From Nonomuraea harbinensis (lineage in GTDB: Bacteria > Actinomycetota > Actinomycetes > Streptosporangiales > Streptosporangiaceae), in contig NZ_JAHKRN010000002.1 in assembly GCF_019396385.1 (NCBI RefSeq), forward strand, positions 124,001 to 188,000: DNA of 64,000 nucleotides. The letters are read 5' to 3'. This document shows positions 52,495-64,000 of the stretch, piece by piece. The notes under the pieces are model-generated. The model had not been told where the DNA came from and ran no database searches. It saw only the letters and a program-made list of their open reading frames with translations. The position numbers and the translations under genes were made by a program. Position 1 is the first letter of the stretch. The number at the start of each line of letters is the position of its first letter.

Positions 52495-53718
52495 TCAGCG
52501 GGTGACCGCGTCCTGCTCGGCGTCCGGCGACTCCGCGGCCGGCGGTTCGTCCGGGCGGCCGGTGCCGAGGACGAGCGCCGCCAGCAGCACCACCGCGCAG
52601 ACCACGCCCAGCATCACCCGGTAGTCGAGAGCCGCGATCAAGCTGGCGCCCACGGCGATGGAGGCGACCTGCGGCACGGTCACCCCGAACTCGAACGCGG
52701 CGAAGACGCGTCCGCGCAGATCCTCCGGGGTGCGCCGCTGGAGCGAGGTGGTGGCGCCGATGACGATCCACGGCGCCGCCACGCCCAGCACCAGCATGCC
52801 CGCGATGACCACCGGGGCGATCGGCACGGTCAGCAGCAGGCTGCTCGCGCCGACCATGACGAGCGCGACGACCACCAGCCCGCGCTCGCCGGCGCGGCGG
52901 ATCACCCCGCCCGCGAGCGCGCCGCCGGCGATGGTGCCGACCGCCTGCGCCCCGGCGAGCACGGCGAGGAAGGTGGCCTGGCGCGCCAGCCCCTCGGTGA
53001 CGACGGCGATGGCGATGGACTCGAAGAAGCCGATGACGAGCATCGTGAGCGCGCAGGCGATGACGAGCCTGCGCAGGTTGGCGGCGTCGCGCAGGAAGCG
53101 CAGCCCGCCCGTGGTCTCGGCTATCAGCGACTGGCCGGTCCTGGTGGGGCGCGGCTCGGAGACCCGGATGAGGAGTACGGCCACGGCCGCCACGACGAAG
53201 ACCACCGCGTCGATCACCACGACGACCTGGGCGCCCTGCCAGACGAACACCCCGGCGCCGATGATCGGGGCGAACACCCGCAGGAGGCCGCGCATCGCCT
53301 GCACCGTGCCGTTGGCGTCGCCGAGCTGGTCTTCCGGGACGACGGCGGGCAGGAGGGCGTTCTGCGCGGGTCCGGTGACGCTGCCCAGCGCGCCGTACAG
53401 GAACATGATCACGTAGACGAGCCAGACGTCGTCCCGGTCGTCGACCAGCAGGAGCAGGAGGACGACGGCCGCCGAGGACAGGTACGAGGCGGCCAGGAGC
53501 GGGCGGCGGCGGAAGCGGTCCACCAGCAGGCCCGACAGGGGTAACACCAGGCTGCCGCCGGCGAAGGCGAACATGACGAGCCCGGCGGCCGGCGTGCTTC
53601 CCGTGAGCGTTTTCACCCAAATGGCCATTGCCAGGAATAGCGCGTAGTCGCCGAGATTGGAAAGCACGTCACCGAGAATGTAGAAGCGCATCTGCGGGCG
53701 CTTGAGTAGTTGCGCCAT
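52495..53718 (-). CDS. MFS transporter, drug-efflux type
   Basis: This 407-residue major facilitator protein has about twelve membrane segments. The cytoplasmic loop between helices 2 and 3 is SGLLVDRFRRRPLL, the usual MFS motif A. Its mirrored second-half equivalent is GVIRRAGERGLVVV. GPAQNALLPAVVPEDQLGDAN resembles macrolide/multidrug exporters. I chose the ATG at 53718 because GGGAAGAGAG precedes it. It is divergent from the NRPS operon (177 bp apart) and may export its peptide. The assignment to the cluster is by position only. Confidence 0.88.
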   Translation of the reverse strand: MAQLLKRPQMRFYILGDVLSNLGDYALFLAMAIWVKTLTGSTPAAGLVMFAFAGGSLVLPLSGLLVDRFRRRPLLAASYLSSAAVVLLLLLVDDRDDVWLVYVIMFLYGALGSVTGPAQNALLPAVVPEDQLGDANGTVQAMRGLLRVFAPIIGAGVFVWQGAQVVVVIDAVVFVVAAVAVLLIRVSEPRPTRTGQSLIAETTGGLRFLRDAANLRRLVIACALTMLVIGFFESIAIAVVTEGLARQATFLAVLAGAQAVGTIAGGALAGGVIRRAGERGLVVVALVMVGASSLLLTVPIAPVVIAGMLVLGVAAPWIVIGATTSLQRRTPEDLRGRVFAAFEFGVTVPQVASIAVGASLIAALDYRVMLGVVCAVVLLAALVLGTGRPDEPPAAESPDAEQDAVTR

Positions 53719-53913
53719 TTTCGGCTCTCTTCCCATCGCGGCTGCTTATCGGGCGTCACTGTAACACCGGCCGGAGGCGGCCCGGCCCAACCTGGCGCGA
53801 ACTTGCCACCTTGCCGTCCCCCTGCTCGTGGCGGGGCGCGACCCCGGGATAGCTTCCTGCTCAGCACGCGGAGTTTCGTGGAATTCCCACTCTTGCGAAT
53901 TGGCGTGGTCCAC

Positions 53914-55803
53914 ATGGAAAATCAGATATTCGAGGCCGCGGAACGGCTCGCGGATAAACTCGACGTCCCTTCCGGTGCGGTGGTCGCGGCGGCCGGGCTG
54001 GTGGTGCTCGCCCGCCGGGCCGGCGCTGATGAGCTGAGCGGTGAGATCTGCGGGCACGAGGTCCGGCTGCCGTGGCGGGCGCCCCTGAGCGCGGTGGCCG
54101 GTCACGCCGCGGCCGTGCCCGGGGTGGCCGGTCCTGTGGTGCCGGTGAGCGCGGGCGGGCGGACTGTCGTGGCCGACCTCGGCGCCCGCTCCGTCGAGGC
54201 GGAGCCGCTGCTGCGCGGGCACCTGGCCGCCGTCCTCGCCGCGGATGCCGAGCAGCCGGCGGGGCGGGCGTGGCTGTGGGGTGAGGAGGACGAGCGCGTC
54301 GTCGCGGGCGCCCACACCGAGCGCGCCTGGGACACCGACCGCACCGTGGCGTCGATGATCCGGGAGCACATGGTCTCCCGGCCCGGCGAGGTGGCCGTCG
54401 AGCAGGGTGGCGAGGTCGTCACGTACCGGCGGCTCGGCGAGCTGACGGCGGCCGTCGCCGCGGGCTTCGCGCGGGCCGGGGTCGCCCGGGGCGACCTGGT
54501 CGGCATCGGCCTGCCGCGCCGGATCGAGACCATCGCCGCGCTGCTGGCCACCTGGTCGCTGGGCGCAGGGTTCCTGCCGCTCGACCCGGCGCACCCGCCG
54601 CTCCGGCTGGGCCGCCAGCTTGAGGCGGCGGGAGCGCGCTTCGCGGTGCTGCCGTCCGGCGTCGACGTCCCCGGCTGCGTCCAGCTCAGCCTGGACACCG
54701 GCGCCGGAGCCGCGGTCGCACCGCCGGACTTTCCGGTGGAGCACGACGGTGTCGCCTACGCGCTGTCCACGTCGGGTTCCACCGGCACGCCGAAGGCGGT
54801 CGCCATCCCGCACGCCGCGCTGCGGCACTGCGTGGGCGCCATCGCTCACCTGATCGGCGCCGACCGTCCGCGCGTCACCTGCATGGCCACGCTGACGTTC
54901 GACATGTCGACCATGGAGATCTTCCTGCCGCTCGCGACCGGCGGCCGCCTCCTGCTGGTCGGCGAGGACCTGCAGCGGGACCCGGAACGGCTGGCGGCCT
55001 GGCTCTCCGGCAGGCGCCTGGACCTGGTCCAGGCCACGCCCACCACCTGGCGGATGACCGTGCCGTACCTGGAGCCGGGCAGCCTGGCCGGCGCGGACGT
55101 CATCGCGGGCGGCGAGGCGCTCAGCGCCGCCCTGGCCGCCGGGCTGCAGCGCACCGGAGCCCGCGTGTGGAACGGCTACGGGCCGACCGAGACCACCATC
55201 TACACGGTCCTCCATCACGTGCCCGATCCGCCGGCGGACCCGGTGCCGATCGGCAGGCCGCTGCCCGGCATCCGCGCCGCCGTGCTCGACCAGTGGGACC
55301 GCGCGGCCCCCGTCGGGCAGATCGGCGAGCTGGTGCTGAGCGGCCCGCAGCTCGCGCTCGGCTACGTCGGCGACCCGGCGCGGACGGCCGCCGTCTTCCA
55401 GGAGCATCCCGGCCTGGGCCGGGTGTACCGGACCGGCGATCTGTGCGCGTGGCGCCAGGACGGCACGCTGGCCTACCACGGCCGCGTCGACCACCAGGTG
55501 AAGCTGCGCGGCCAGCGCGTCGAGCTGGAGGAGATCGAGGCCGTCGCCGAGCGGCACCGGCAGGTCGTCAGGGCGGCGGCGGTGGTGGTGGAGCACGGCG
55601 CCAACGACAAGCGGCTGGTGCTGTACGCGCAGGCGGACGGCCTGCGCGGGGCCGAGCTGCGGGAGCACCTGGAGCAGTGGCTCCCGCGCGCGCTGATGCC
55701 GCAGCACGTCGCGATCCTGCCCGCCCTTCCCCTGACGGGCAGCCAGAAGATCGACAGGTCCGCGCTCCAGACGCACGCGGAGACCCTCGTGGAGGCGCGA
55801 TGA
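53914..55803 (+). CDS. Stand-alone NRPS adenylation protein
   Basis: This 629-residue protein has an N-terminal region of about 130 residues with no clear domain, then an adenylation domain without a carrier domain. A3 is LSTSGSTGTPKAVA (about 285), A4 is FDMSTMEIFLPL (about 329), A5 is NGYGPTETT, A7 is YRTGD and A10 is TGSQKIDRS, with the catalytic Lys. The specificity line read by alignment to GrsA is D-M-M-Q-I-G-G-I-Y. The nearest known code I recall is the glycine type (DILQLGLIW), so Gly or another small residue is a weak guess. It should load the free N-terminal T domain of the next synthetase in trans. The ribosome site is weak. Confidence 0.9.
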   Translation: MENQIFEAAERLADKLDVPSGAVVAAAGLVVLARRAGADELSGEICGHEVRLPWRAPLSAVAGHAAAVPGVAGPVVPVSAGGRTVVADLGARSVEAEPLLRGHLAAVLAADAEQPAGRAWLWGEEDERVVAGAHTERAWDTDRTVASMIREHMVSRPGEVAVEQGGEVVTYRRLGELTAAVAAGFARAGVARGDLVGIGLPRRIETIAALLATWSLGAGFLPLDPAHPPLRLGRQLEAAGARFAVLPSGVDVPGCVQLSLDTGAGAAVAPPDFPVEHDGVAYALSTSGSTGTPKAVAIPHAALRHCVGAIAHLIGADRPRVTCMATLTFDMSTMEIFLPLATGGRLLLVGEDLQRDPERLAAWLSGRRLDLVQATPTTWRMTVPYLEPGSLAGADVIAGGEALSAALAAGLQRTGARVWNGYGPTETTIYTVLHHVPDPPADPVPIGRPLPGIRAAVLDQWDRAAPVGQIGELVLSGPQLALGYVGDPARTAAVFQEHPGLGRVYRTGDLCAWRQDGTLAYHGRVDHQVKLRGQRVELEEIEAVAERHRQVVRAAAVVVEHGANDKRLVLYAQADGLRGAELREHLEQWLPRALMPQHVAILPALPLTGSQKIDRSALQTHAETLVEAR

Positions 55804-57569
55804 GAATCCTGGGTATCAGTGGCCTGCACGACTCCGAGGAGTTCAAGCGGCGCGAACTGCCGGGGCTGTCGGAGCGGGAGTACCGCATCAGCCAGGGCCG
55901 CGACTCGGCCGCCGCGCTGGTCGTGGACGGCCGGATCGTGGCCGCCGCGGCCGAGGAGCGGTTCACCGGAGACAAGTCCACCGGGAGCTTCCCGGTCAAC
56001 GCCATCAAGTTCTGCCTCGACAGGGCCGGGCTTGGCCTGGACGACCTGGACCTGATCGGCCACGGCTTCGCCCACGAGCGGTCCGAGCTGGAGTCCGGCG
56101 ACGGCTACCTGGCCAGGCGCTTCACGGAGGTGTACGACCCGGAACGCCAGGTGGGCTGGTTCGCCGAGCACTTCCCCGGCGCGGCGGTGCGCTCCCGCTT
56201 CACGCCGGTCCCGCACCACCTGGCCCACGCGGCCAGCGCCTACTACGTGAGCGGGTTCGACGACTGCCTGGTGCTCGTGGCCGACGGCCGGGGCGAGACC
56301 GAGAGCCTGACCGTGCTCGCGGGGACCGGCGGCAAACTGGAGGTCCTGCACACGGTCCCCGCCATGCACTCGCTCGGCACCCTCTACGGCGTGTTCACCC
56401 TGTACCTGGGCTTCGAGATGGCTCTCGACGAGTACAAGATGATGGGCCTGGCGTCGTACGGCGACCGCACCCGCTACGAGCGCGAAATGCGGCAGCTGGT
56501 GCGCCTGCGCCCCGGCCCCGAGTTCGCCCTCCCGCTGCTGGCCCGCGACGGCGACCTGCTGCAACGCGAGACGCACCGGGGCGTGCTGGCCGTACTGGAA
56601 GAGACGTTCGGACCGGCCAGGGAGCCGGGCGGGCCGATCGAGCGGCGGCACATGGACGTCGCGGCGGCGGCGCAGGCGGCGCTGGAGAACTGCCTGCTGC
56701 ACGTGCTGCGGCACTTCCGCCGCCAGACCGGGCTGCGGGACCTGTGCTACGCGGGCGGTGTCGCGCTCAACTGCACGGCCAACGGGCTCATCCTGCGCAG
56801 CCGCCTGTTCGACCGGGTCTTCGTGCCGCCGGGCGCGGGCGACGACGGGACGGCGGTGGGCTCGGCGCTCTACCTGCACGCGACGCGCAAGCCGGAGACG
56901 CCGATCCAGCCGATGCGGATGCCGTACTGGGGCACCGCGTACGAGTCCGGCGAGATCGCCGAGCACCTGGCGGCCAGGGAGGACGTGCGGGCCCGGCGGG
57001 TGACGGACGAGGCGGAGCTGCTGGCGGAGACCGCCGAGGCGCTGGAGCGGGGCGAGGTGGTGGCCTGGTTCCAGGGCGGCATGGAGTTCGGCCCGCGCGC
57101 GCTGGGCTGCCGCAGCATCCTGGCAGACCCGCGCGAGGCGCGCATGCGCGACCACATCAACAACCTGATCAAGAAGCGGGAGGACTTCAGGCCCTTCGCC
57201 CCGGTGGTGACCGAGGCGGACGCGTCGACGTTCTTCGAGATCGGGCGCGGGCGGGAACGGCAGTACGCGCACATGCTGTTCACCACGCGCACCCGCCCCG
57301 AGCACCGCGACCGGCTGGGCGCCGTCACCCACGTCGACGGCACCGCCCGGGTCCAGGCGGTCGGGCCCGACGCCAACCCTCTCCTGCACGGACTCCTGGA
57401 GGCCTTCGGCGCGCGCACCGGGATGCCCGTGCTGCTGAACACCTCGTTCAACATGCGCGGCCAGCCGATCGTGCGCACGCCGCGCGAGGCGGTCGACACC
57501 TTCCTGCGCGCGGGCCTGGACCGGCTGGTCATCGGCGACCACGTGGTGCTGCCGGGGGGCACGTCGTGA
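55800..57569 (+). CDS. NodU/TobZ-family carbamoyltransferase
   Basis: This 589-residue enzyme transfers a carbamoyl group from carbamoyl phosphate through carbamoyl-adenylate. The N-terminal Kae1-like domain has the metal motif HHLAHAASAYY (His139 and His143) and VLVADGRGETES. The C-terminal YrdC-like half has MEFGPRALGCRSILADPR and VLLNTSFNMRGQPIV. The motif equivalent to HDAS of TobZ reads GRDSAAAL here (Arg34), after an insertion of about 20 residues at the N terminus. It overlaps the A-protein gene by ATGA and the next synthetase by GTGA, so it is an integral part of the assembly line. The acceptor is unknown. Confidence 0.9.
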   Translation: MRILGISGLHDSEEFKRRELPGLSEREYRISQGRDSAAALVVDGRIVAAAAEERFTGDKSTGSFPVNAIKFCLDRAGLGLDDLDLIGHGFAHERSELESGDGYLARRFTEVYDPERQVGWFAEHFPGAAVRSRFTPVPHHLAHAASAYYVSGFDDCLVLVADGRGETESLTVLAGTGGKLEVLHTVPAMHSLGTLYGVFTLYLGFEMALDEYKMMGLASYGDRTRYEREMRQLVRLRPGPEFALPLLARDGDLLQRETHRGVLAVLEETFGPAREPGGPIERRHMDVAAAAQAALENCLLHVLRHFRRQTGLRDLCYAGGVALNCTANGLILRSRLFDRVFVPPGAGDDGTAVGSALYLHATRKPETPIQPMRMPYWGTAYESGEIAEHLAAREDVRARRVTDEAELLAETAEALERGEVVAWFQGGMEFGPRALGCRSILADPREARMRDHINNLIKKREDFRPFAPVVTEADASTFFEIGRGRERQYAHMLFTTRTRPEHRDRLGAVTHVDGTARVQAVGPDANPLLHGLLEAFGARTGMPVLLNTSFNMRGQPIVRTPREAVDTFLRAGLDRLVIGDHVVLPGGTS

Positions 57570-60500
57570 ACCGCGCGACCACGCTCCCGGCCGACGTCGC
57601 GCCGACCGTACGGCCCCGCTACGTCCGCGGGCACCTGTCGGCCGGCCTCTCCGTCCCGGCCGCACCGGGGACGCCCCTGGCCTGGCTCGCGGCGGCGGCG
57701 ATGGCGTTGATCGCCGCGCCGGACTCGGACGAGGTCACGGTGGGCACGGTGGGCACGGTGGGCGCGGCGGACGCCGGGCTGGTGGCACTGAGATCCGCCG
57801 TGGGTCCCGGCACCCGGCTGAGCGATCTGCTGAGCTCCGCCTCGCGCGACGGCACCCGGCTGAGCGCAGACCGGGACGACGAGCCCCGGGTGCTGGTGGC
57901 GGCCGGGATCGGGCGGGCCGAGGCCCAGCGGGTGGCACTGGAGCTGCGTGACTGCGACTGCGTGTTCCTGCTGGCCGACGCCGCGGACGGCTGGCTGCTG
58001 GAGTGCGACTACGACGCCGACCGCTACACCGAGCCGGCGATGCGCTGGCACCTGGACCGCCTGGAGACGCTCCTGCTGCTCCTGGCCGAGGAGCCGGACG
58101 CGCCGCTGGCGGATGTGGTGGTCGCCGCCGAACCGGTGGCGGCGCCCCGGGACTGGGACGAGATCCCCTACGTCGCCCCGCGCACCCCCACCGAGCGGAA
58201 GCTGGCGGCCATCTGGGCCGAGGTGCTGGAGGTCCCCAGGGTCGGCGTGGACGACGACTTCTTCGCCGTCGGCGGCCACTCCATCCTGGCCGCCATGGCC
58301 CTGAGCAGGATCCGCGCGGCCTTCGGCGTCGAGGTGCACTTCGACGAGCTGTTCACCGCCCCGACGCTGGCCGCCTGCGCCAAGGTCGTCGAACGCGCCG
58401 CGGCCGGCCCGGCCCGCCCGCTGACCGGCGCGTCCGGGCCCGCCGTGGCGTCGCTGGAGCAGGAGCGCCTGTGGTTCCTGGAGCAGTGGCGTCCCGGCAC
58501 CGCCCTCTACAACGTGCCGCTGGTGCTGGAGCTGACCGGACCGGTGGATCCGGGCCGGCTGGGGGAGGCGCTGCAGCGCGTGGCGGGCCGCCATCCGGCG
58601 CTGCGCACCGCGTTCGAGAGCGTGGACGGCCGGCCGCGGCCGCTGACCCGCGACGCCGAGGTGCCGTGGCGGCGGGAGGAGGCCGACGACCGGGCGCACG
58701 CCTGGCGGCTGGTGCGCGAACACGTCGCCGAGCCGTTCGACCTGAGCGTCCCGCCGCTGATCCGGGGCGGGCTGGTCAGCTTCGCGGCGGACCGGCACCT
58801 GCTGTACCTGTGCATCCACCACCTGGCCGTCGACGGCTGGTCGCTGGGTCACCTGCTCGACGACCTGGGCGCGGCCTACCGCGGGCTGCCGCTGCCGCCG
58901 CCGGACGGGTTCGGCTACGCCGACTACGCGGCCTGGCAGCGCGGCCGTCCCGTCGCCGACGACCTGCGATGGTGGCGCTCCTACCTGGCGGGGCTGCCGC
59001 CGGTGCTGGAGCTCCCTGGTGACCGGCCGCGCCCGGCGGTGCAGAGCTTCCTCGGCGGCACCAGACGCCGGGTGCTGCCGCCGGACCTGGCCTCGGCGCT
59101 GGCGGACTTCGCGCGGTCGCGCTCGGCGACCGTGTTCGACGTGGCGCTGTCGGCCTTCGCGCTGCTGTTGCGCCGCTGGACGGGACGGAGCGACCTGCCC
59201 ATCGCCACCCCGGTGGCGGCCAGGCCGCTGCCCGAGCTGGAGCCGCTCGTCGGCTTCTTCGTCAACACCCTGGTCGTCCGCGCCGACGTGGGCGGCGACC
59301 CGAGCTTCGCGCAGCTCGTCGAGAGGGTACGGCACAGCGCGACCGCCGCGCTCGGCCACCAGGAGCTGCCGTTCGCCCTGCTGGTGGAGGCGCTGCAGCC
59401 GGAGCGGGCGCTGAGCCACGCGCCGGTGGTCCAGGTGGCCTTCGCGCACTACCGGCCCTCGCATCACGACTGGGAACTGGCCGACGGGCTGGCGGCACGG
59501 CTGCGGCACGCCGACACCGGGACGGCCAAGTTCGACCTCACGCTCACCCTGCACGAGGCGCCGGGGGAGATGGCGCTGGAGGTCGAGTACGCCGCCGACC
59601 TGCTGGACGAGGCCACGGCCGACCGCCTGGCCGGACAGTGGCTGGAGCTGGTGCGCGGGCTGCTGGCGGCGCCCGGGGAGCCGGTGTCGCGGATCGGCTC
59701 GCTGCCCGCCGACCAGCGGCGCCGGCTCACGAGCTGGTCCCGCGCCGCTGACGAGACGCACCGGCCGGCGAGCCGGGTCACGATCCCGGAGCTGGTCGCC
59801 CGGCAGGTGGCCGATCGCGGCGACGCGGTGGCCGTCTCGGCGGGTCCCGTCAAGCTCACCTACGCCGAGCTCTGGTCCAGGTCGGGAGCGCTGGCCGCGC
59901 GCCTCGGCCCCCGCCGGGGACAGCTGGTCGGCCTGGCCTGCCACCGCGGCGCCGACCTGGTCGTCGCCATGCTCGCGATCCTGCGCGCCGGTGCGGCGTA
60001 CGTGCCGCTCGACCCTTCCTACCCGGCCGCCCGGCTGTCCTTCATGGTGGAGGACACCGGCGTGGGCACGCTCGTCGGCCACCGCGACCTGCTCGCCGCG
60101 CTGCCCGGGACGGGAATCGAGACGATCCCGATCGACGGTGTGGCCCCGGCGACCGCGCCCGAGGTGCCGATCCGTCCCGAGGACGCCGCCTACGTCATCT
60201 ACACCTCCGGTTCCACGGGCCGGCCCAAGGGCGTCGTCGTCCCGCACCGCGGCATCGCCCGCTTGGTGAGCGGCGCCGACTACGTCCCGCTCGACACCAC
60301 GACCGTGCTCGCCCAGCTGTCCAACGCCTCCTTCGACGCCATCACCTTCGAGGTCTGGGGCGCGCTGGCCAACGGCGGCAGGGTGGTCGTCGTCCCGCCC
60401 GCCGCGGTCCTGTCGCCGCCGGCGCTGGCCGAGCTGCTCAGGGCCGAGCACGTCACCACGCTCTTCCTCACCACCGCCCTGTTCAACGCCGTCACCAGCG

Positions 60501-61591
60501 AGGAGCCGGGCGCCTTCGCCACCGTCGACCACCTGTACTTCGGCGGCGAGGCGCTCGACGTGGCCCGGGTGGGCGAGGTGCTGCGCGGCGGGCGCGGCCC
60601 GCGCCACCTGCACAACATCTACGGCCCGACCGAGGTCACCACCTTCTCCACCTGGCAGCCGCTCGCCGAGCCGCCCACGACCCGGGGCCCCATCGGCCGG
60701 CCGATCTCCGGCACCACCGCCCGGGTGGTCGACCTGGACACCGGCGACCTCGCCCCGGTGGGCGTGCCGGGCGAGCTGTGGCTCGGCGGACCCGGCGTGG
60801 CCTGGGGCTACTGGCGGCGGCCCGGGGCCACCGCCCGCGCCTTCGTCGCCGACCCCTTCTCCGGCGAGCCGGGGCGACGGCTCTACCGCACCGGCGACCT
60901 CGTGCGCTGGACGCCCGGCGGGACCCTCGAATTCCTCGGCCGCATCGACAGGCAGCTGAAGATCCGCGGATTCCGCGTCGAGCCCGGCGAGGTCGAGCTG
61001 GCCCTGTCGGCGCTGCCCGGGGTGCGCGCCCGCGCCGTCGTCGCGCGTACCCCGCAGGACGGCCCGGTGGAGCTGATCGCCTACGTCCAGCCCGGCGGTG
61101 ACACCGGGCTGACGGCCGGAGCGGTGCGCGAGGCCCTGGCCCGCGAGCTGCCCGACCATCTGGTGCCCGCCCAGGTGATCCTGGTGGACCGGATGCCGCT
61201 CGATCCCAACGGCAAGGTCGAGACGTCCTCGCTGCCCGCGCCGGAGGAGCGGCGCGCCGAGGCGGCGGCGGTCGCGCCCGCGGGCCCGGTGGAGGAACTG
61301 CTCGCCGAGGTCTGGGCCGAGGTGCTCGGCCTGGAGCGGCTGGGCGTCACCGACGACTTCTTCGAACTCGGCGGCCACTCGCTGCACGCCGTCAAGGTCA
61401 CCACCCGGGCCGAGCGCGCCCTGCGCACCTCGATGTCGGTCCGCGACCTGTTCCGGCACAAGACCGTCCGGCGTCTGGCCGCCGCGTTACGCGAGGCGGA
61501 TCCCGACCGGCTGGACCGGATAGCCGCCATCGTCCTGCAGGTACGGCACGCCCGCGTGGGCGCGGAGGAAGAGATCGCAGATGCACACTGA
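57566..61591 (+). CDS. Nonribosomal peptide synthetase, T-C-A-T
   Basis: This protein has 1341 residues. Residues 1-195 look like the worn C-terminal part of a condensation domain (ECDYDADRYTEPAMRWHLDRL, split by changes). A T domain follows (DDDFFAVGGHSILA, Ser239), then a C domain (about 295-720) with HHLAVDG at 418-424. The A domain (about 770-1240) has A3 YTSGSTGRPKGVV, and the second T domain has Ser1272 in GGHSLHA. The A-domain line reads D-A-F-F-Y-G-I-T-F with Lys, matching the published isoleucine type as I recall it. The tail from 1300 is a probable docking helix. The start is GTG, overlapping the carbamoyltransferase stop. Confidence 0.93.
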   Translation: MNRATTLPADVAPTVRPRYVRGHLSAGLSVPAAPGTPLAWLAAAAMALIAAPDSDEVTVGTVGTVGAADAGLVALRSAVGPGTRLSDLLSSASRDGTRLSADRDDEPRVLVAAGIGRAEAQRVALELRDCDCVFLLADAADGWLLECDYDADRYTEPAMRWHLDRLETLLLLLAEEPDAPLADVVVAAEPVAAPRDWDEIPYVAPRTPTERKLAAIWAEVLEVPRVGVDDDFFAVGGHSILAAMALSRIRAAFGVEVHFDELFTAPTLAACAKVVERAAAGPARPLTGASGPAVASLEQERLWFLEQWRPGTALYNVPLVLELTGPVDPGRLGEALQRVAGRHPALRTAFESVDGRPRPLTRDAEVPWRREEADDRAHAWRLVREHVAEPFDLSVPPLIRGGLVSFAADRHLLYLCIHHLAVDGWSLGHLLDDLGAAYRGLPLPPPDGFGYADYAAWQRGRPVADDLRWWRSYLAGLPPVLELPGDRPRPAVQSFLGGTRRRVLPPDLASALADFARSRSATVFDVALSAFALLLRRWTGRSDLPIATPVAARPLPELEPLVGFFVNTLVVRADVGGDPSFAQLVERVRHSATAALGHQELPFALLVEALQPERALSHAPVVQVAFAHYRPSHHDWELADGLAARLRHADTGTAKFDLTLTLHEAPGEMALEVEYAADLLDEATADRLAGQWLELVRGLLAAPGEPVSRIGSLPADQRRRLTSWSRAADETHRPASRVTIPELVARQVADRGDAVAVSAGPVKLTYAELWSRSGALAARLGPRRGQLVGLACHRGADLVVAMLAILRAGAAYVPLDPSYPAARLSFMVEDTGVGTLVGHRDLLAALPGTGIETIPIDGVAPATAPEVPIRPEDAAYVIYTSGSTGRPKGVVVPHRGIARLVSGADYVPLDTTTVLAQLSNASFDAITFEVWGALANGGRVVVVPPAAVLSPPALAELLRAEHVTTLFLTTALFNAVTSEEPGAFATVDHLYFGGEALDVARVGEVLRGGRGPRHLHNIYGPTEVTTFSTWQPLAEPPTTRGPIGRPISGTTARVVDLDTGDLAPVGVPGELWLGGPGVAWGYWRRPGATARAFVADPFSGEPGRRLYRTGDLVRWTPGGTLEFLGRIDRQLKIRGFRVEPGEVELALSALPGVRARAVVARTPQDGPVELIAYVQPGGDTGLTAGAVREALARELPDHLVPAQVILVDRMPLDPNGKVETSSLPAPEERRAEAAAVAPAGPVEELLAEVWAEVLGLERLGVTDDFFELGGHSLHAVKVTTRAERALRTSMSVRDLFRHKTVRRLAAALREADPDRLDRIAAIVLQVRHARVGAEEEIADAH
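57736..57762 (+). repeat. Triple 9-base repeat in the NRPS N-terminal region
   Basis: CACGGTGGG occurs three times in tandem, coding VGT repeats in the worn N-terminal domain. Confidence 0.6.
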
Positions 61592-64000
61592 CCGCGCACA
61601 GGAGCTGCTGATCGACAAGCTGCTCGCCGAGGCCGGCCTCGGCGACGCGGCCGGCGCCCCGCCGGCGGTGCCGCGCAGGCGGCCGGGCGACGATCCGCTG
61701 TCGTCCGGCCAGGAGCGGCTGTGGTTCCTCGACCAGTGGCGGCCCGGCACCCCCCTCTACAACGTGCCCGTGCTGCTGGAACTGCACGGTCCCGCCGACG
61801 TGGAAGAGCTGCGCCGTGCCGTACAGGGGCTGGCCGACCGGCACGCGGTGCTGCGCACCGCCTTCACCGTGGGCGCCGGCGGCCGTCCGCGCACGCGGGT
61901 CCACGAGCGGGCCGGCGTCCCGTGGAGCCACGAGCAGGCGTCCGCCTGGCAGGCCGCCACGGCGCTCGCCGGCGAGCGGGTCAGGGAGCCCTTCGACCTG
62001 ACGGCGGCGCCGCTGATGCGGGCCGGACTGATCAGCCACACGGCGGAGCACCACCTGCTGTGGATCTCCTTCCACCACATCGCCGTCGACGGCTGGTCGC
62101 TCGGGCTGCTGCTGGACGAGCTGGCGGGCGGCGAGCCCGCCGTGCCTCCCGTCGAGTACGCCGACTACGCGGCGTGGGAGCGGGCCAGGCCGCTGGAGGA
62201 CGGGCTGGCCTGGTGGCGTCAGCACCTGGAGGGCCTGCCGCCGCTGCTCGAACTGCCCGCCGACCGGCGCCGCCCGCCGGTCCAGGAGTACGGCGGCGCC
62301 ACCGAGCACTTCCTTCTCCCCGCCCCAGAGCGGGTCCGCGACCTGGCCAGGGCGTCCGGCGCGACCGTGTTCGAGGTGCTCTTCTCGGCCTTCGCGCTGG
62401 TGCTCGGACGCTGGAGCGGGCGCACCGACCTGGTGATCGGCACACCGGTGGCCGGGAGACCGGCTCCCGAGCTGGAGGAGCTCGTCGGCTTCTTCGTCAA
62501 CACGCTCGTCGTCCGGGCCGACCTGAGCGGCGACCCCACCTTCACCGAGCTGCTTGAGCGGGTGCGCGAGTCGTCGGCGCAGTCGCAGGCGCACCAGCAG
62601 GTGCCGTTCGCGGCGCTGGTCGACGCGCTGCAGCCGGAGCGCGAGCTGTCACACCCGCCCCTGGTCCAGGTGCAGTTCGGCCTGCACAGGCAGGAGCGCT
62701 CCCGCTGGCGGCTGGGCGCCGCCGAGGCGGTCCAACTGCCCGCCGACACCGGCACCGCCAAGTTCGACCTCACCGTCACCGTGGTCGACTGCGACGGCGA
62801 GCTGCGCGTCGAGCTGGAGTACGCGACCGCGCTGTTCGACGCCGGGACCGCGCGGCGGCTGGCCGACCAGTGGCAGACCCTGCTCGCGGGGCTGCTGGCC
62901 GCGCCCCACCTGCCCGTCTCGCACATCAGCGCGCTGCCGGAAGCCGAACGGCGGCTCATCGAAGGCTGGTCCGGCCCGGCCCGCCGGATCGAACCGGGCA
63001 CGACCCTGCCCGGCCTGGTCGCCGAGCAGGTCAGGGCGCGGCCGGACGCCGTCGCCGTCACCGACGGGCCGCTGCGGCTCACCTACGCCGAGCTGTGGGA
63101 GCGGTCGGGCGCCCTGGCCGCGCGGCTGGGCTCGGGGCCGGGCGACCTGGTCGGCCTGGCCTGCCGGCGCAGCGCGGAGCTCGTCGTCGGGATGCTCGCC
63201 ATCCTGCGCACCGGCGCGGCCTACGTGCCGCTCGACCCCGCCTACCCGGCGGCGCGGCTGGCGTTCATGCTGGCCGACGCCGAGCTGGAGATCGTGGTCA
63301 CGCAGCGCGGCGTCGAGCTGCCGGACGGGGACCACCGCACGGTCCTGGCCGACGCGCCGGCCGCCGAGGTGGACTACGACGGCCCCGGGCCGGACCCCGG
63401 CGACCTGGCCTACCTGATCTACACCTCCGGCTCCACCGGCACGCCCAAGGCCGTCATGGTCACCCACCACAACGTGGTCAGGCTGCTGGAGAGCACCCGG
63501 CCCGCCTACGGCTTCGGCCCCGATGACGTCTGGACGCTCCTGCACTCCAGCTCCTTCGACGTCTCCGTCTGGGAAGTGTGGAACTGCCTGGCCACCGGCG
63601 GCCGGCTGGTCGTCGTGAGCCACTGGGAGAGCCGCGAGCCCGAGGCGTACTACGACCTCGTGGCCCGCGAACGGGTGACCGTGCTGAACGCCACCCCGGC
63701 CGTCTTCCGCCAGTTCGTCGGCGTGGACGAGCGCCGGGCCGCCGAGCTGGCGCTGCGGCTGGTCGTCTTCGCGGGTGACGCGCTCGACCGGGACTCGGTG
63801 CGGCGCTGGTGGCAGCGCCACCCCGAGGACGCCCCGCGGCTGGTCAACATGTACGGCATCACCGAGACCACCGTGCACAGCACCTACGCCCCGCTCACCG
63901 GTGAACTGCTGGCCGGGCGGACGAGCCCGATCGGCGTGCCCCTGCCCGACCTGGGCATCCACGTCCTGGACCGCGACGGGCTGCCGGTCGCGGCCGGGGT
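61581..64000 (+). CDS. Nonribosomal peptide synthetase, C-A (runs off the window)
   Basis: The frame is open to the right edge, so at least 806 residues are visible. An N-terminal helix-rich stretch (RAQELLIDKLLAEAGL) suggests a docking element. The C domain (about 40-470) has HHIAVDG at 165-171, and the A domain starts near 490 with A3 YTSGSTGTPKAVM and A5 MYGITETTVH. The specificity line reads D-V-W-N-V-A-M-V-H, closest to the threonine type (DFWNIGMVH) with two changes. The ATG overlaps the previous gene by 11 bases, with GAGGAAGAG as ribosome site. Domains after A5-A6 are beyond the window. Confidence 0.93.
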   Translation, partial: MHTDRAQELLIDKLLAEAGLGDAAGAPPAVPRRRPGDDPLSSGQERLWFLDQWRPGTPLYNVPVLLELHGPADVEELRRAVQGLADRHAVLRTAFTVGAGGRPRTRVHERAGVPWSHEQASAWQAATALAGERVREPFDLTAAPLMRAGLISHTAEHHLLWISFHHIAVDGWSLGLLLDELAGGEPAVPPVEYADYAAWERARPLEDGLAWWRQHLEGLPPLLELPADRRRPPVQEYGGATEHFLLPAPERVRDLARASGATVFEVLFSAFALVLGRWSGRTDLVIGTPVAGRPAPELEELVGFFVNTLVVRADLSGDPTFTELLERVRESSAQSQAHQQVPFAALVDALQPERELSHPPLVQVQFGLHRQERSRWRLGAAEAVQLPADTGTAKFDLTVTVVDCDGELRVELEYATALFDAGTARRLADQWQTLLAGLLAAPHLPVSHISALPEAERRLIEGWSGPARRIEPGTTLPGLVAEQVRARPDAVAVTDGPLRLTYAELWERSGALAARLGSGPGDLVGLACRRSAELVVGMLAILRTGAAYVPLDPAYPAARLAFMLADAELEIVVTQRGVELPDGDHRTVLADAPAAEVDYDGPGPDPGDLAYLIYTSGSTGTPKAVMVTHHNVVRLLESTRPAYGFGPDDVWTLLHSSSFDVSVWEVWNCLATGGRLVVVSHWESREPEAYYDLVARERVTVLNATPAVFRQFVGVDERRAAELALRLVVFAGDALDRDSVRRWWQRHPEDAPRLVNMYGITETTVHSTYAPLTGELLAGRTSPIGVPLPDLGIHVLDRDGLPVAAG

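What the first reader, a model, noticed from the sequence alone, without database searches (positions are those of the whole stretch)
53914..61591. Split NRPS initiation module with a carbamoyltransferase between its halves
The first protein is an adenylation domain with no carrier domain. The third protein begins with a carrier domain that has no A domain. Between them, overlapping both by four bases, is a NodU/TobZ-type carbamoyltransferase. The simplest reading is that the free A domain loads the free T domain in trans and the carbamoyltransferase decorates the tethered or free starter residue. That would give an N- or O-carbamoylated starter unit (for example a ureido or carbamate group) on a peptide continuing with Ile-like and Thr-like residues. 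I know of no characterised cluster with exactly this three-gene order.
Basis: partly seen in the sequence, partly recalled or inferred. Interest (0 to 1): 0.75.

Follow-up and report, generated by a model that had tools for sequence, protein, structure and literature searches.

The report
Carbamoyl-capping starter for an antibiotic-like peptide
A three-gene set in a Nonomuraea-like actinomycete appears to load the first amino acid of a seven-residue peptide onto its carrier from a separate enzyme and to add a urea-like (carbamoyl) cap while it sits there, which would be a new way of starting such molecules.

Summary
A free A protein (A1), a NodU/TobZ-type carbamoyltransferase (CT) and an NRPS whose first carrier (T0) lacks an A domain overlap by ATGA and GTGA. 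Beyond the window the line continues to seven modules and a thioesterase, then a Trp-5-halogenase-like gene and a B12-type radical SAM. The order A1-CT-N1 recurs in four other actinobacteria. T0 is preceded by a degenerate C-terminal half of a C domain.

Comparison goes further. In a tree of 74 CTs, 13 form one clade: 12 have a carrier within 700 nt downstream, the 13th has half-C-A-T. None of 73 other CT loci has a carrier within 1.5 kb (six hold under 1 kb of flank). One relative fuses CT to T. Eight free A partners form their own clade against 12 controls. Burkholderia glumae keeps half-C-A-T unsplit, feeding a PKS whose domains fit a biotin-like ureido acid.

Best reading: A1 loads T0 in trans with a small amino acid and CT carbamoylates it there, most likely on the alpha-nitrogen. 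The N-position is only moderately supported. Two relatives where T0 may be internal, and Thr modules in 10 of 12 NRPS clusters, argue against. No biochemistry exists.

The parts
52495..53736 (-). MFS exporter, divergent from A1; kept beside the trio in the four orthologous clusters
   Evidence: tblastn 86, 76, 54 and 60% identity in L036, L037, L038, L039
53914..55803 (+). A1: free adenylation protein without carrier, 629 aa; signature DMMQIGGIYK
   Evidence: Pfam, code with GrsA numbering, motifs
53914..54318 (+). A1 N-terminal extension (135 aa), probable remnant of the C-terminal lobe of a C domain
   Evidence: hhalign only weak: 5.6%, 36 columns, 6.0% over 125 columns against the 8-row half-C profile; the two best Foldseek hits of the A1 model are chains of a C-A didomain, 6p1j
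55800..57569 (+). CT: NodU/TobZ/GdmN-type carbamoyltransferase, 589 aa
   Evidence: PF02543 and PF16861; PDB matches 7xb6, 9s2t, GdmN, TobZ; HHxxH invariant in 9 of 9
57566..61591 (+). N1: half-C - T0 - C - A - T, 1341 aa, GTG start
   Evidence: Pfam, start and GTGA overlap
57578..58123 (+). degenerate C-terminal half of a condensation domain
   Evidence: hhalign 93.8%, E 1.7e-7 to columns 213-446 of 477 of a C profile; 97.2%, E 4.6e-11 with 8 rows; AF2 model pLDDT 75.8 matches C domains
58172..58393 (+). T0: carrier domain without A domain, GGHS intact
   Evidence: HMM 120 bits, motif
58451..59728 (+). C domain next to T0, HHLAVDG, expected to take the T0-bound residue as donor
   Evidence: Pfam, motif
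59798..61216 (+). A domain, signature DAFFYGITFK (Ile-like, recalled)
61298..61489 (+). T domain of module 2
61581..64000 (+). N2 (runs past the window to C45:192006): C-A(DVWNVAMVHK)-T-C-A(DPFAYGISIK)-T

Best explanation
The trio is a split initiation module with its own N-capping enzyme. (1) A1 adenylates a small amino acid (Gly/Ala-like pocket) and loads it in trans onto T0 of N1. (2) CT, using carbamoyl phosphate and ATP (as recalled for its family), carbamoylates the residue while it is bound to T0, most likely on the free alpha-amine, giving an N-carbamoyl (ureido) aminoacyl-T0. (3) The first C domain of N1 passes this capped residue to the Ile-type residue; the line goes on Thr, X4, an Arg/Orn-like residue, X6, X7, and the thioesterase releases a heptapeptide. 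A Trp-5-halogenase-like enzyme and a B12-type radical SAM modify it. Shown: genes, domains, overlaps, conservation, phylogenetic tie of CT to T0 and of the free A partners to each other. Inferred: loading, carbamoylation, its position, and all residues. My weights: trans loading of T0 by A1 0.85; CT acts on the T0-bound residue 0.75; alpha-nitrogen 0.6.
For: A1-CT-N1 with orthologues of the halogenase (75-91%) and radical SAM (60-87%) in the four relatives as in the window's genome. CT tree of 74: T0-linked clade of 13 (support 0.97), 12 of 13 with a T within 700 nt downstream and the 13th with half-C-A-T; 0 of 61 others within 1500 nt and 0 of 12 more that had fallen out of that count. G013 fuses CT to a T domain and has a free A next. 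G825 and G938 have CT, then T0-C-A-T, then a free A in its own open frame. The 8 free A partners form one clade (0.966) with 12 control A domains in the tree. B. glumae keeps the module unsplit (half-C-A-T) behind its CT. The nine A partners, eight free and the B. glumae one, keep Asp235, which suggests that they load an amino acid with a free alpha-amine (role of Asp235 recalled). Alpha-N: two orthologous A1 proteins carry DILQLGVIWK, a Gly code with no side chain to carbamoylate (code recalled), and none of the partner codes resembles the Ser or Thr codes that I recall. B. glumae: first PKS module with KR and DH but no ER, two further modules with DH, ER and KR, AT motifs HAFH, HAFH, YASH, thioesterase, BioB, avidin-family and methylmalonyl-CoA mutase genes are what an N-carbamoyl-aminoacyl starter would need to become a methylated dethiobiotin/biotin skeleton by ring closure of the urea onto the enoyl thioester.
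Against: I know of no assay of an enzyme of this clade. Characterised NodU-type enzymes that I recall mostly carbamoylate oxygen. Ten of the 12 NRPS clusters of the clade, the window's included, also show a Thr-type A domain (in Actinocrinis and M. qiuiae that stretch was not read), so O-carbamoyl-Thr is possible. In G023 and G073 a separate A-T protein with an Ile/Val-type code stands apart from the protein that T0 begins, so T0 may be internal there, where an alpha-N cap would block elongation. No free A partner of this clade was found near T0 in G023, G073, Kitasatospora or Solihabitans. In the tree with controls the B. glumae A domain does not join the free-A clade. The code of A1 itself (DMMQIGGIYK) is not one I know. 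The B. glumae product is a retro-biosynthetic guess: an aminotransferase class I/II gene there could equally mean a BioF- or BioA-like step, and my motif scan did not find the KS motif in its second PKS nor an ER motif in any.
Confidence: 0.6

Rival explanations
1. The CT carbamoylates an oxygen: the side chain of Thr (module 3) or of a hydroxylated residue, on the line or after release. Its place beside T0 is operon history only.
For: The family's characterised members that I recall are mostly O-carbamoyltransferases; PDB matches are 7xb6, 9s2t, GdmN and TobZ. Thr-type codes were seen in 10 of the 12 NRPS clusters of the clade, and the other two were not read there.
Against: The CT clade goes with T0 or half-C-A-T in 13 of 13 and is fused to T in G013; B. 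glumae has the CT with a PKS and no second A domain in the stretch read.
Confidence: 0.25
2. The CT acts on the side chain of the T0-bound residue (for example a hydroxyl or a second amine added earlier), so that T0 can also be internal.
For: Would suit G023 and G073, where T0 may be internal.
Against: Two orthologous A1 proteins have a Gly code. The genes that I found in all five clusters are exporter, A1, CT, NRPS, halogenase, flavin reductase and radical SAM; none is plainly a hydroxylase or aminating enzyme.
Confidence: 0.12
3. A1 does not serve T0; another A domain of the line loads T0 in trans, as CmnA-A1 does for CmnI, and A1 plays another role.
For: Such cross-loading is proven for capreomycin (PMC12400406, passages seen); four relatives lack a free A of this clade near T0.
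Against: A1 overlaps CT by four bases in five genomes by coordinates, a free A sits next to the CT-T fusion in G013, and the free A partners form their own clade.
Confidence: 0.1

Closest known systems
NodU/TobZ/GdmN carbamoyltransferases (PF02543 + PF16861)
   Same: Both Pfam domains, HHxxH and C-terminal motifs; best PDB matches 7xb6, 9s2t, GdmN, TobZ
   Different: This clade is linked to, and once fused with, an NRPS carrier; the enzymes recalled act on small molecules or finished products and mostly on oxygen
LgrA-type initiation module with a formylation domain (linear gramicidin)
   Same: Works alike if the reading is right: the alpha-amine of the carrier-bound first residue is capped with a one-carbon unit before the first condensation (recalled)
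   Different: Separate NodU-type enzyme and carbamoyl instead of a formylation domain; A and T are split
A-less NRPS modules loaded in trans (capreomycin CmnI / CmnA-A1)
   Same: A carrier without its own A domain, loaded by an A domain elsewhere (PMC12400406, passages); CmnI structure 9uay is among the fold matches of half-C-T0
   Different: Here a dedicated free A gene, an initiation position and a CT between the two
Streptavidin nexus / alpha-methyldesthiobiotin (mkp, mdb) clusters
   Same: Biotin-like acid with an avidin-family gene, as guessed for the B. glumae relative (PMC13336041, passages)
   Different: Those make alpha-methyl-KAPA with FAS-like genes and a BioF-like enzyme and then use BioA/BioD; the B. 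glumae relative has CT, half-C-A-T and three PKS genes
Padanamide N-carbamoylation; GE81112 and plantariitin clusters
   Same: NRPS clusters with a carbamoyltransferase (padanamide and GE81112: from titles and recall)
   Different: Padanamide carbamoylates diaminobutyrate (title seen in a reference list); GE81112 paper not held; plaA's role in plantariitin is not established (PMC11858073, first quarter of the text and passages). None shows the A-CT-T0 order in what I saw

Membership tests
NodU/TobZ-type carbamoyltransferase | N-terminal Kae1-like and C-terminal domains (PF02543, PF16861) | tested here: met
   157.7 and 223.2 bits against cut-offs 24 and 27
NodU/TobZ-type carbamoyltransferase | HHxxH metal-site motif (recalled) | tested here: met
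   HHLAH at 139, invariant H139, H140, H143 in 9 of 9
NodU/TobZ-type carbamoyltransferase | carbamoyl phosphate and ATP dependent transfer | not testable with these tools
   needs enzyme assay
NRPS initiation module (split, trans-loaded) | free A domain with intact core motifs and no carrier | tested here: met
NRPS initiation module (split, trans-loaded) | A-less carrier with active serine, followed by a C domain | tested here: met
   GGHS at 236 then Condensation
NRPS initiation module (split, trans-loaded) | A1 loads T0 | not testable with these tools
   only comparative support
NRPS initiation module (split, trans-loaded) | T0 is the first carrier of the line in all relatives | tested here: inconclusive
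   judged from gene order only: not contradicted in 11 of 13, several of them read in part; in G023 and G073 T0 may be internal
LgrA-type formylating initiation module | formylation domain fused to A-T | tested here: not met
   no formyltransferase family in A1, CT or N1 at E up to 0.001
Trp 5-halogenase (downstream gene) | Trp_halogenase family, nearest to a 5-halogenase | tested here: met
   PF04820 466.5 bits; 2wet 831 bits; regiospecificity not tested

The most novel reading that the evidence does not exclude
There is a class of N-carbamoyl (ureido) initiation modules shared by NRPS and PKS lines: a NodU-type enzyme caps the alpha-amine of the carrier-bound first amino acid. In actinobacteria the module is split into free A, CT and T0 (often half-C-T0) and yields ureido-capped peptides; in B. 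glumae it is intact and the urea then closes the imidazolidinone ring of a polyketide-made biotin-like antimetabolite.
Probability: 0.45. Interest if true: 0.82.

Novelty: new variant of a known kind. Interest (0 to 1): 0.63.

Why it matters
It would add carbamoyl to the caps that assembly lines can place on their first residue (formyl and acyl being the ones I recall), give genome miners a marker (T0-linked CT clade) for ureido-started peptides and polyketides, offer a split, portable starter for engineering, and suggest a PKS route to the ureido ring of biotin-like antibiotics that differs from the route published for Streptomyces (PMC13336041, passages seen).

Tried and rejected
Looked for a known product by papers. 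In the titles and abstract beginnings listed, nothing matched: 3 of 3 listed; 1 of 1; 15 of 121; 25 of 35; 25 of 114; 1 of 1; 15 of 23; 15 of 15; 12 of 107; open-licence PMC only. Saskemycin has a carbamoyltransferase but is a glycolipid (PMC12637814, passages). Plantariitin A's plaA was considered; the paper does not assign its role. Acidomycin (PMC13111796) and PRISM (PMC4787774) papers: passages only. A1 extension as half C: sequence evidence weak, kept only as probable. G073's half-C is weak on its own (40.5%). B. glumae A domain as member of the free-A clade: it joined (0.955) but not once 12 control A domains were added; claim withdrawn. T-domain tree too short to resolve the T0 of all relatives. 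Methyltransferase, 301-aa, M16 and NDK-like genes downstream were left out of the cluster core: of the four downstream stretches read only N. soli's has them. On plasmids 103 records match the CT at E up to 1e-80, but I saw only the best 10, so further clade members there may be missed.
Full report
What is there. The window is bases 124001-188000 of a 342-kb contig of a 9.39-Mb genome whose nearest named relative by this locus is Nonomuraea soli. A1 (53914-55803) is an adenylation protein without carrier; CT (55800-57569) has both carbamoyltransferase Pfam domains; N1 (57566-61591) holds two carriers, one C and one A domain. The overlaps are ATGA and GTGA. N1's start is the GTG at 57566, not 57563 as my first script took it.

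Rest of the line. On the same contig N2 (C-A-T-C-A-T, 2141 aa) and N3 (three C-A-T modules and a thioesterase, 3318 aa) follow, then a Trp halogenase, a flavin reductase and a radical SAM of family TIGR03975. Seven carriers and seven A domains were found. Signatures in order: DMMQIGGIYK, DAFFYGITFK, DVWNVAMVHK, DPFAYGISIK, DVGDVGAIDK, DVSHVGAVDK, DTWDMGYNDK. From recalled codes the second is Ile-like, the third Thr-like and the fifth Arg/Orn-like; the others I leave open. The halogenase is nearest to tryptophan 5-halogenase 2wet (831 bits).

The two extensions. N1 starts with about 200 residues that match the C-terminal half of C domains: hhalign 93.8%, E 1.7e-7 for five orthologues; of 20 column-shuffled controls eight were printed, all at or below 0.1%. 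With B. glumae, Kitasatospora and G073 added it is 97.2%, E 4.6e-11; alone these three give 96.3, 86.9 and only 40.5%. The AF2 model (pLDDT 75.8) finds C domains in the PDB. A1's extension gives only 5.6-6.0%; its model's two best PDB hits are chains of a C-A didomain, but that model is poor in the A domain (mean pLDDT 67.0).

Relatives. In a sample of 250 genomes of the family, four besides the window's own have a CT at 51% or more (84, 57, 56 and 51%). A class sample of 394 added two, G825 and G938, a phylum sample of 396 none above 45%. Among plasmid records the best ten are Kitasatospora NBC_00039 (54.3%) and nine of Burkholderia glumae (51.8%); 93 more were not listed. MFS-A1-CT-N1 is kept in N. 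soli, Acrocarpospora, Actinocrinis and M. qiuiae; these four also have the halogenase (91, 85, 77, 75%), the other four genomes searched do not at E 1e-30, and Solihabitans was not held. In three of the four the downstream half lies on another contig, so synteny there is inferred; in N. soli it is continuous.

CT goes with T0. I built a tree of 74 CTs. Thirteen form a clade with support 0.97: the five above, G023, G073, Solihabitans, G013, G825, G938, Kitasatospora and B. glumae. Twelve have a carrier within 700 nt downstream on the same strand; in B. glumae an A domain comes first and the carrier after it. None of the other 61 has a carrier within 1500 nt, nor any of 12 further loci that had fallen out of the count. 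Most of those 73 loci hold only about 1.5 kb of flank, and six hold under 1 kb, so that zero is for close neighbours only. In G013 the CT reads on into a carrier in one protein of 704 aa, with the free A next.

A goes with CT and T0. Free A proteins beside CT or T0 occur in eight of the 13. With 12 control A domains (A1's best matches elsewhere in the genomes of G013, G023, G073, G205, G825 and G938, four of them with the code DILQLGLIWK) the eight still form a clade with support 0.966. B. glumae has the A in cis, between half-C and T, which shows what an unsplit module looks like, though its A domain joins the Gly-like controls, not the free-A clade. Kitasatospora, Solihabitans, G023 and G073 lack such a partner in the stretches read (22 to 42 kb each).

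Which atom. Orthologous A1 proteins of Actinocrinis and M. qiuiae carry DILQLGVIWK, a Gly code as I recall it; A1's best one-stretch PDB matches, 5u89 (282 bits) and 4zxh (257), and the second domain of LgrA (225), are Gly-activating as I recall. Glycine has only its amine to offer. The partner codes differ (DMMQIGGIYK, DMVAGGGIAK, DMPWIGAVVK, DMPYVAGVCK, DILQLGVIWK; B. glumae DIAQVGVVWK) while the CT stays, again pointing to the part that amino acids share. Asp235 is kept, so the residue is probably loaded with a free amine and capped afterwards.

B. glumae logic. Its cluster has CT, half-C-A-T-KS-AT-DH-KR-ACP, then KS-AT-DH-ER-KR-ACP, then the same with a thioesterase, and AT motifs HAFH, HAFH, YASH (malonyl, malonyl, methylmalonyl as recalled). 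Beside it are BioB, an avidin-family gene and methylmalonyl-CoA mutase. An N-carbamoyl-alanyl starter, extended once and left as the enoyl thioester, could close by addition of the urea nitrogen to an imidazolidin-2-one; two reducing rounds would give the six-carbon acid with an alpha-methyl group: alpha-methyldethiobiotin, and with BioB alpha-methylbiotin. This is retro-biosynthesis, not shown. It needs Ala; the code does not decide between Gly and Ala. An aminotransferase, an FAD-dependent and a quinone oxidoreductase gene are left unexplained, and a BioF- or BioA-like step is a possible alternative. My motif scan found the KS pattern in the first and third PKS only and its ER pattern in none; ER rests on Pfam. 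The Streptomyces route to alpha-methyldesthiobiotin is different (PMC13336041, passages). I propose no bench work on this organism.

Against. G023 and G073 have an A-T protein (Ile/Val-type code) and C-A(Thr)-T-C, and T0 starts another protein, T0-C-A-T. If T0 is fed by the C before it, a capped amine could not be the acceptor. The Thr-type domain in 10 of 12 NRPS clusters, the other two not read there, leaves O-carbamoyl-Thr open.

Novelty. No title or abstract beginning listed by my searches describes a T0-linked carbamoyltransferase (open-licence PMC only, lists capped). The enzyme families are known and trans loading of an A-less carrier is proven elsewhere (PMC12400406, passages), so I class this as a new variant of a known kind.

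Noticed in passing
C45:204168-206057 (L005:2168-4057), beyond the window: A radical SAM enzyme of TIGR03975, called RiPP maturation C-methyltransferase (514 bits, cut-off 282), sits in an NRPS cluster next to a Trp-5-halogenase-like gene and is kept in the four orthologous clusters.
   Followed up: partly
L105/L110, B. glumae plasmid pWSGX3, record 14123-46847: PKS cluster with carbamoyltransferase, BioB, avidin-family protein and methylmalonyl-CoA mutase whose domain order fits a methylated dethiobiotin/biotin skeleton.
   Followed up: partly
C45:206115-210335 and 211372-219632, beyond the window: Methyltransferase, an unassigned 301-aa protein, M16-peptidase-like and NDK-like genes, then an unassigned 331-aa gene, a ThiS/TtcA-like gene and, by eye only, aminopeptidase-like and MFS genes. 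The first four are kept in N. soli (76-90%) but were not found in the stretches read of the other three; the MFS has a 72% match in Acrocarpospora. Possibly a second small cluster.
   Followed up: no
N2, second C domain (C45:188803-190191): C domain of a distinct type after the Thr module, kept at 81-87% in the two nearest relatives and found after Thr modules in Solihabitans, G023 and G073 (43-45%); may be an epimerising (dual) type.
   Followed up: no
L065:11084-14863 (G073): MbtH domain in frame at the end of the T0-C-A-T protein.
   Followed up: no
L064:2690-4210 and L065:17328-18854 (G023, G073): M20-type peptidase gene directly before CT in both.
   Followed up: no
L104 (Kitasatospora NBC_00039): CT is followed by half-C - T0 - C - T with no A domain in that protein; three A or A-T genes and genes annotated asnB and aspartate/glutamate racemase lie on the other strand.
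   Followed up: partly
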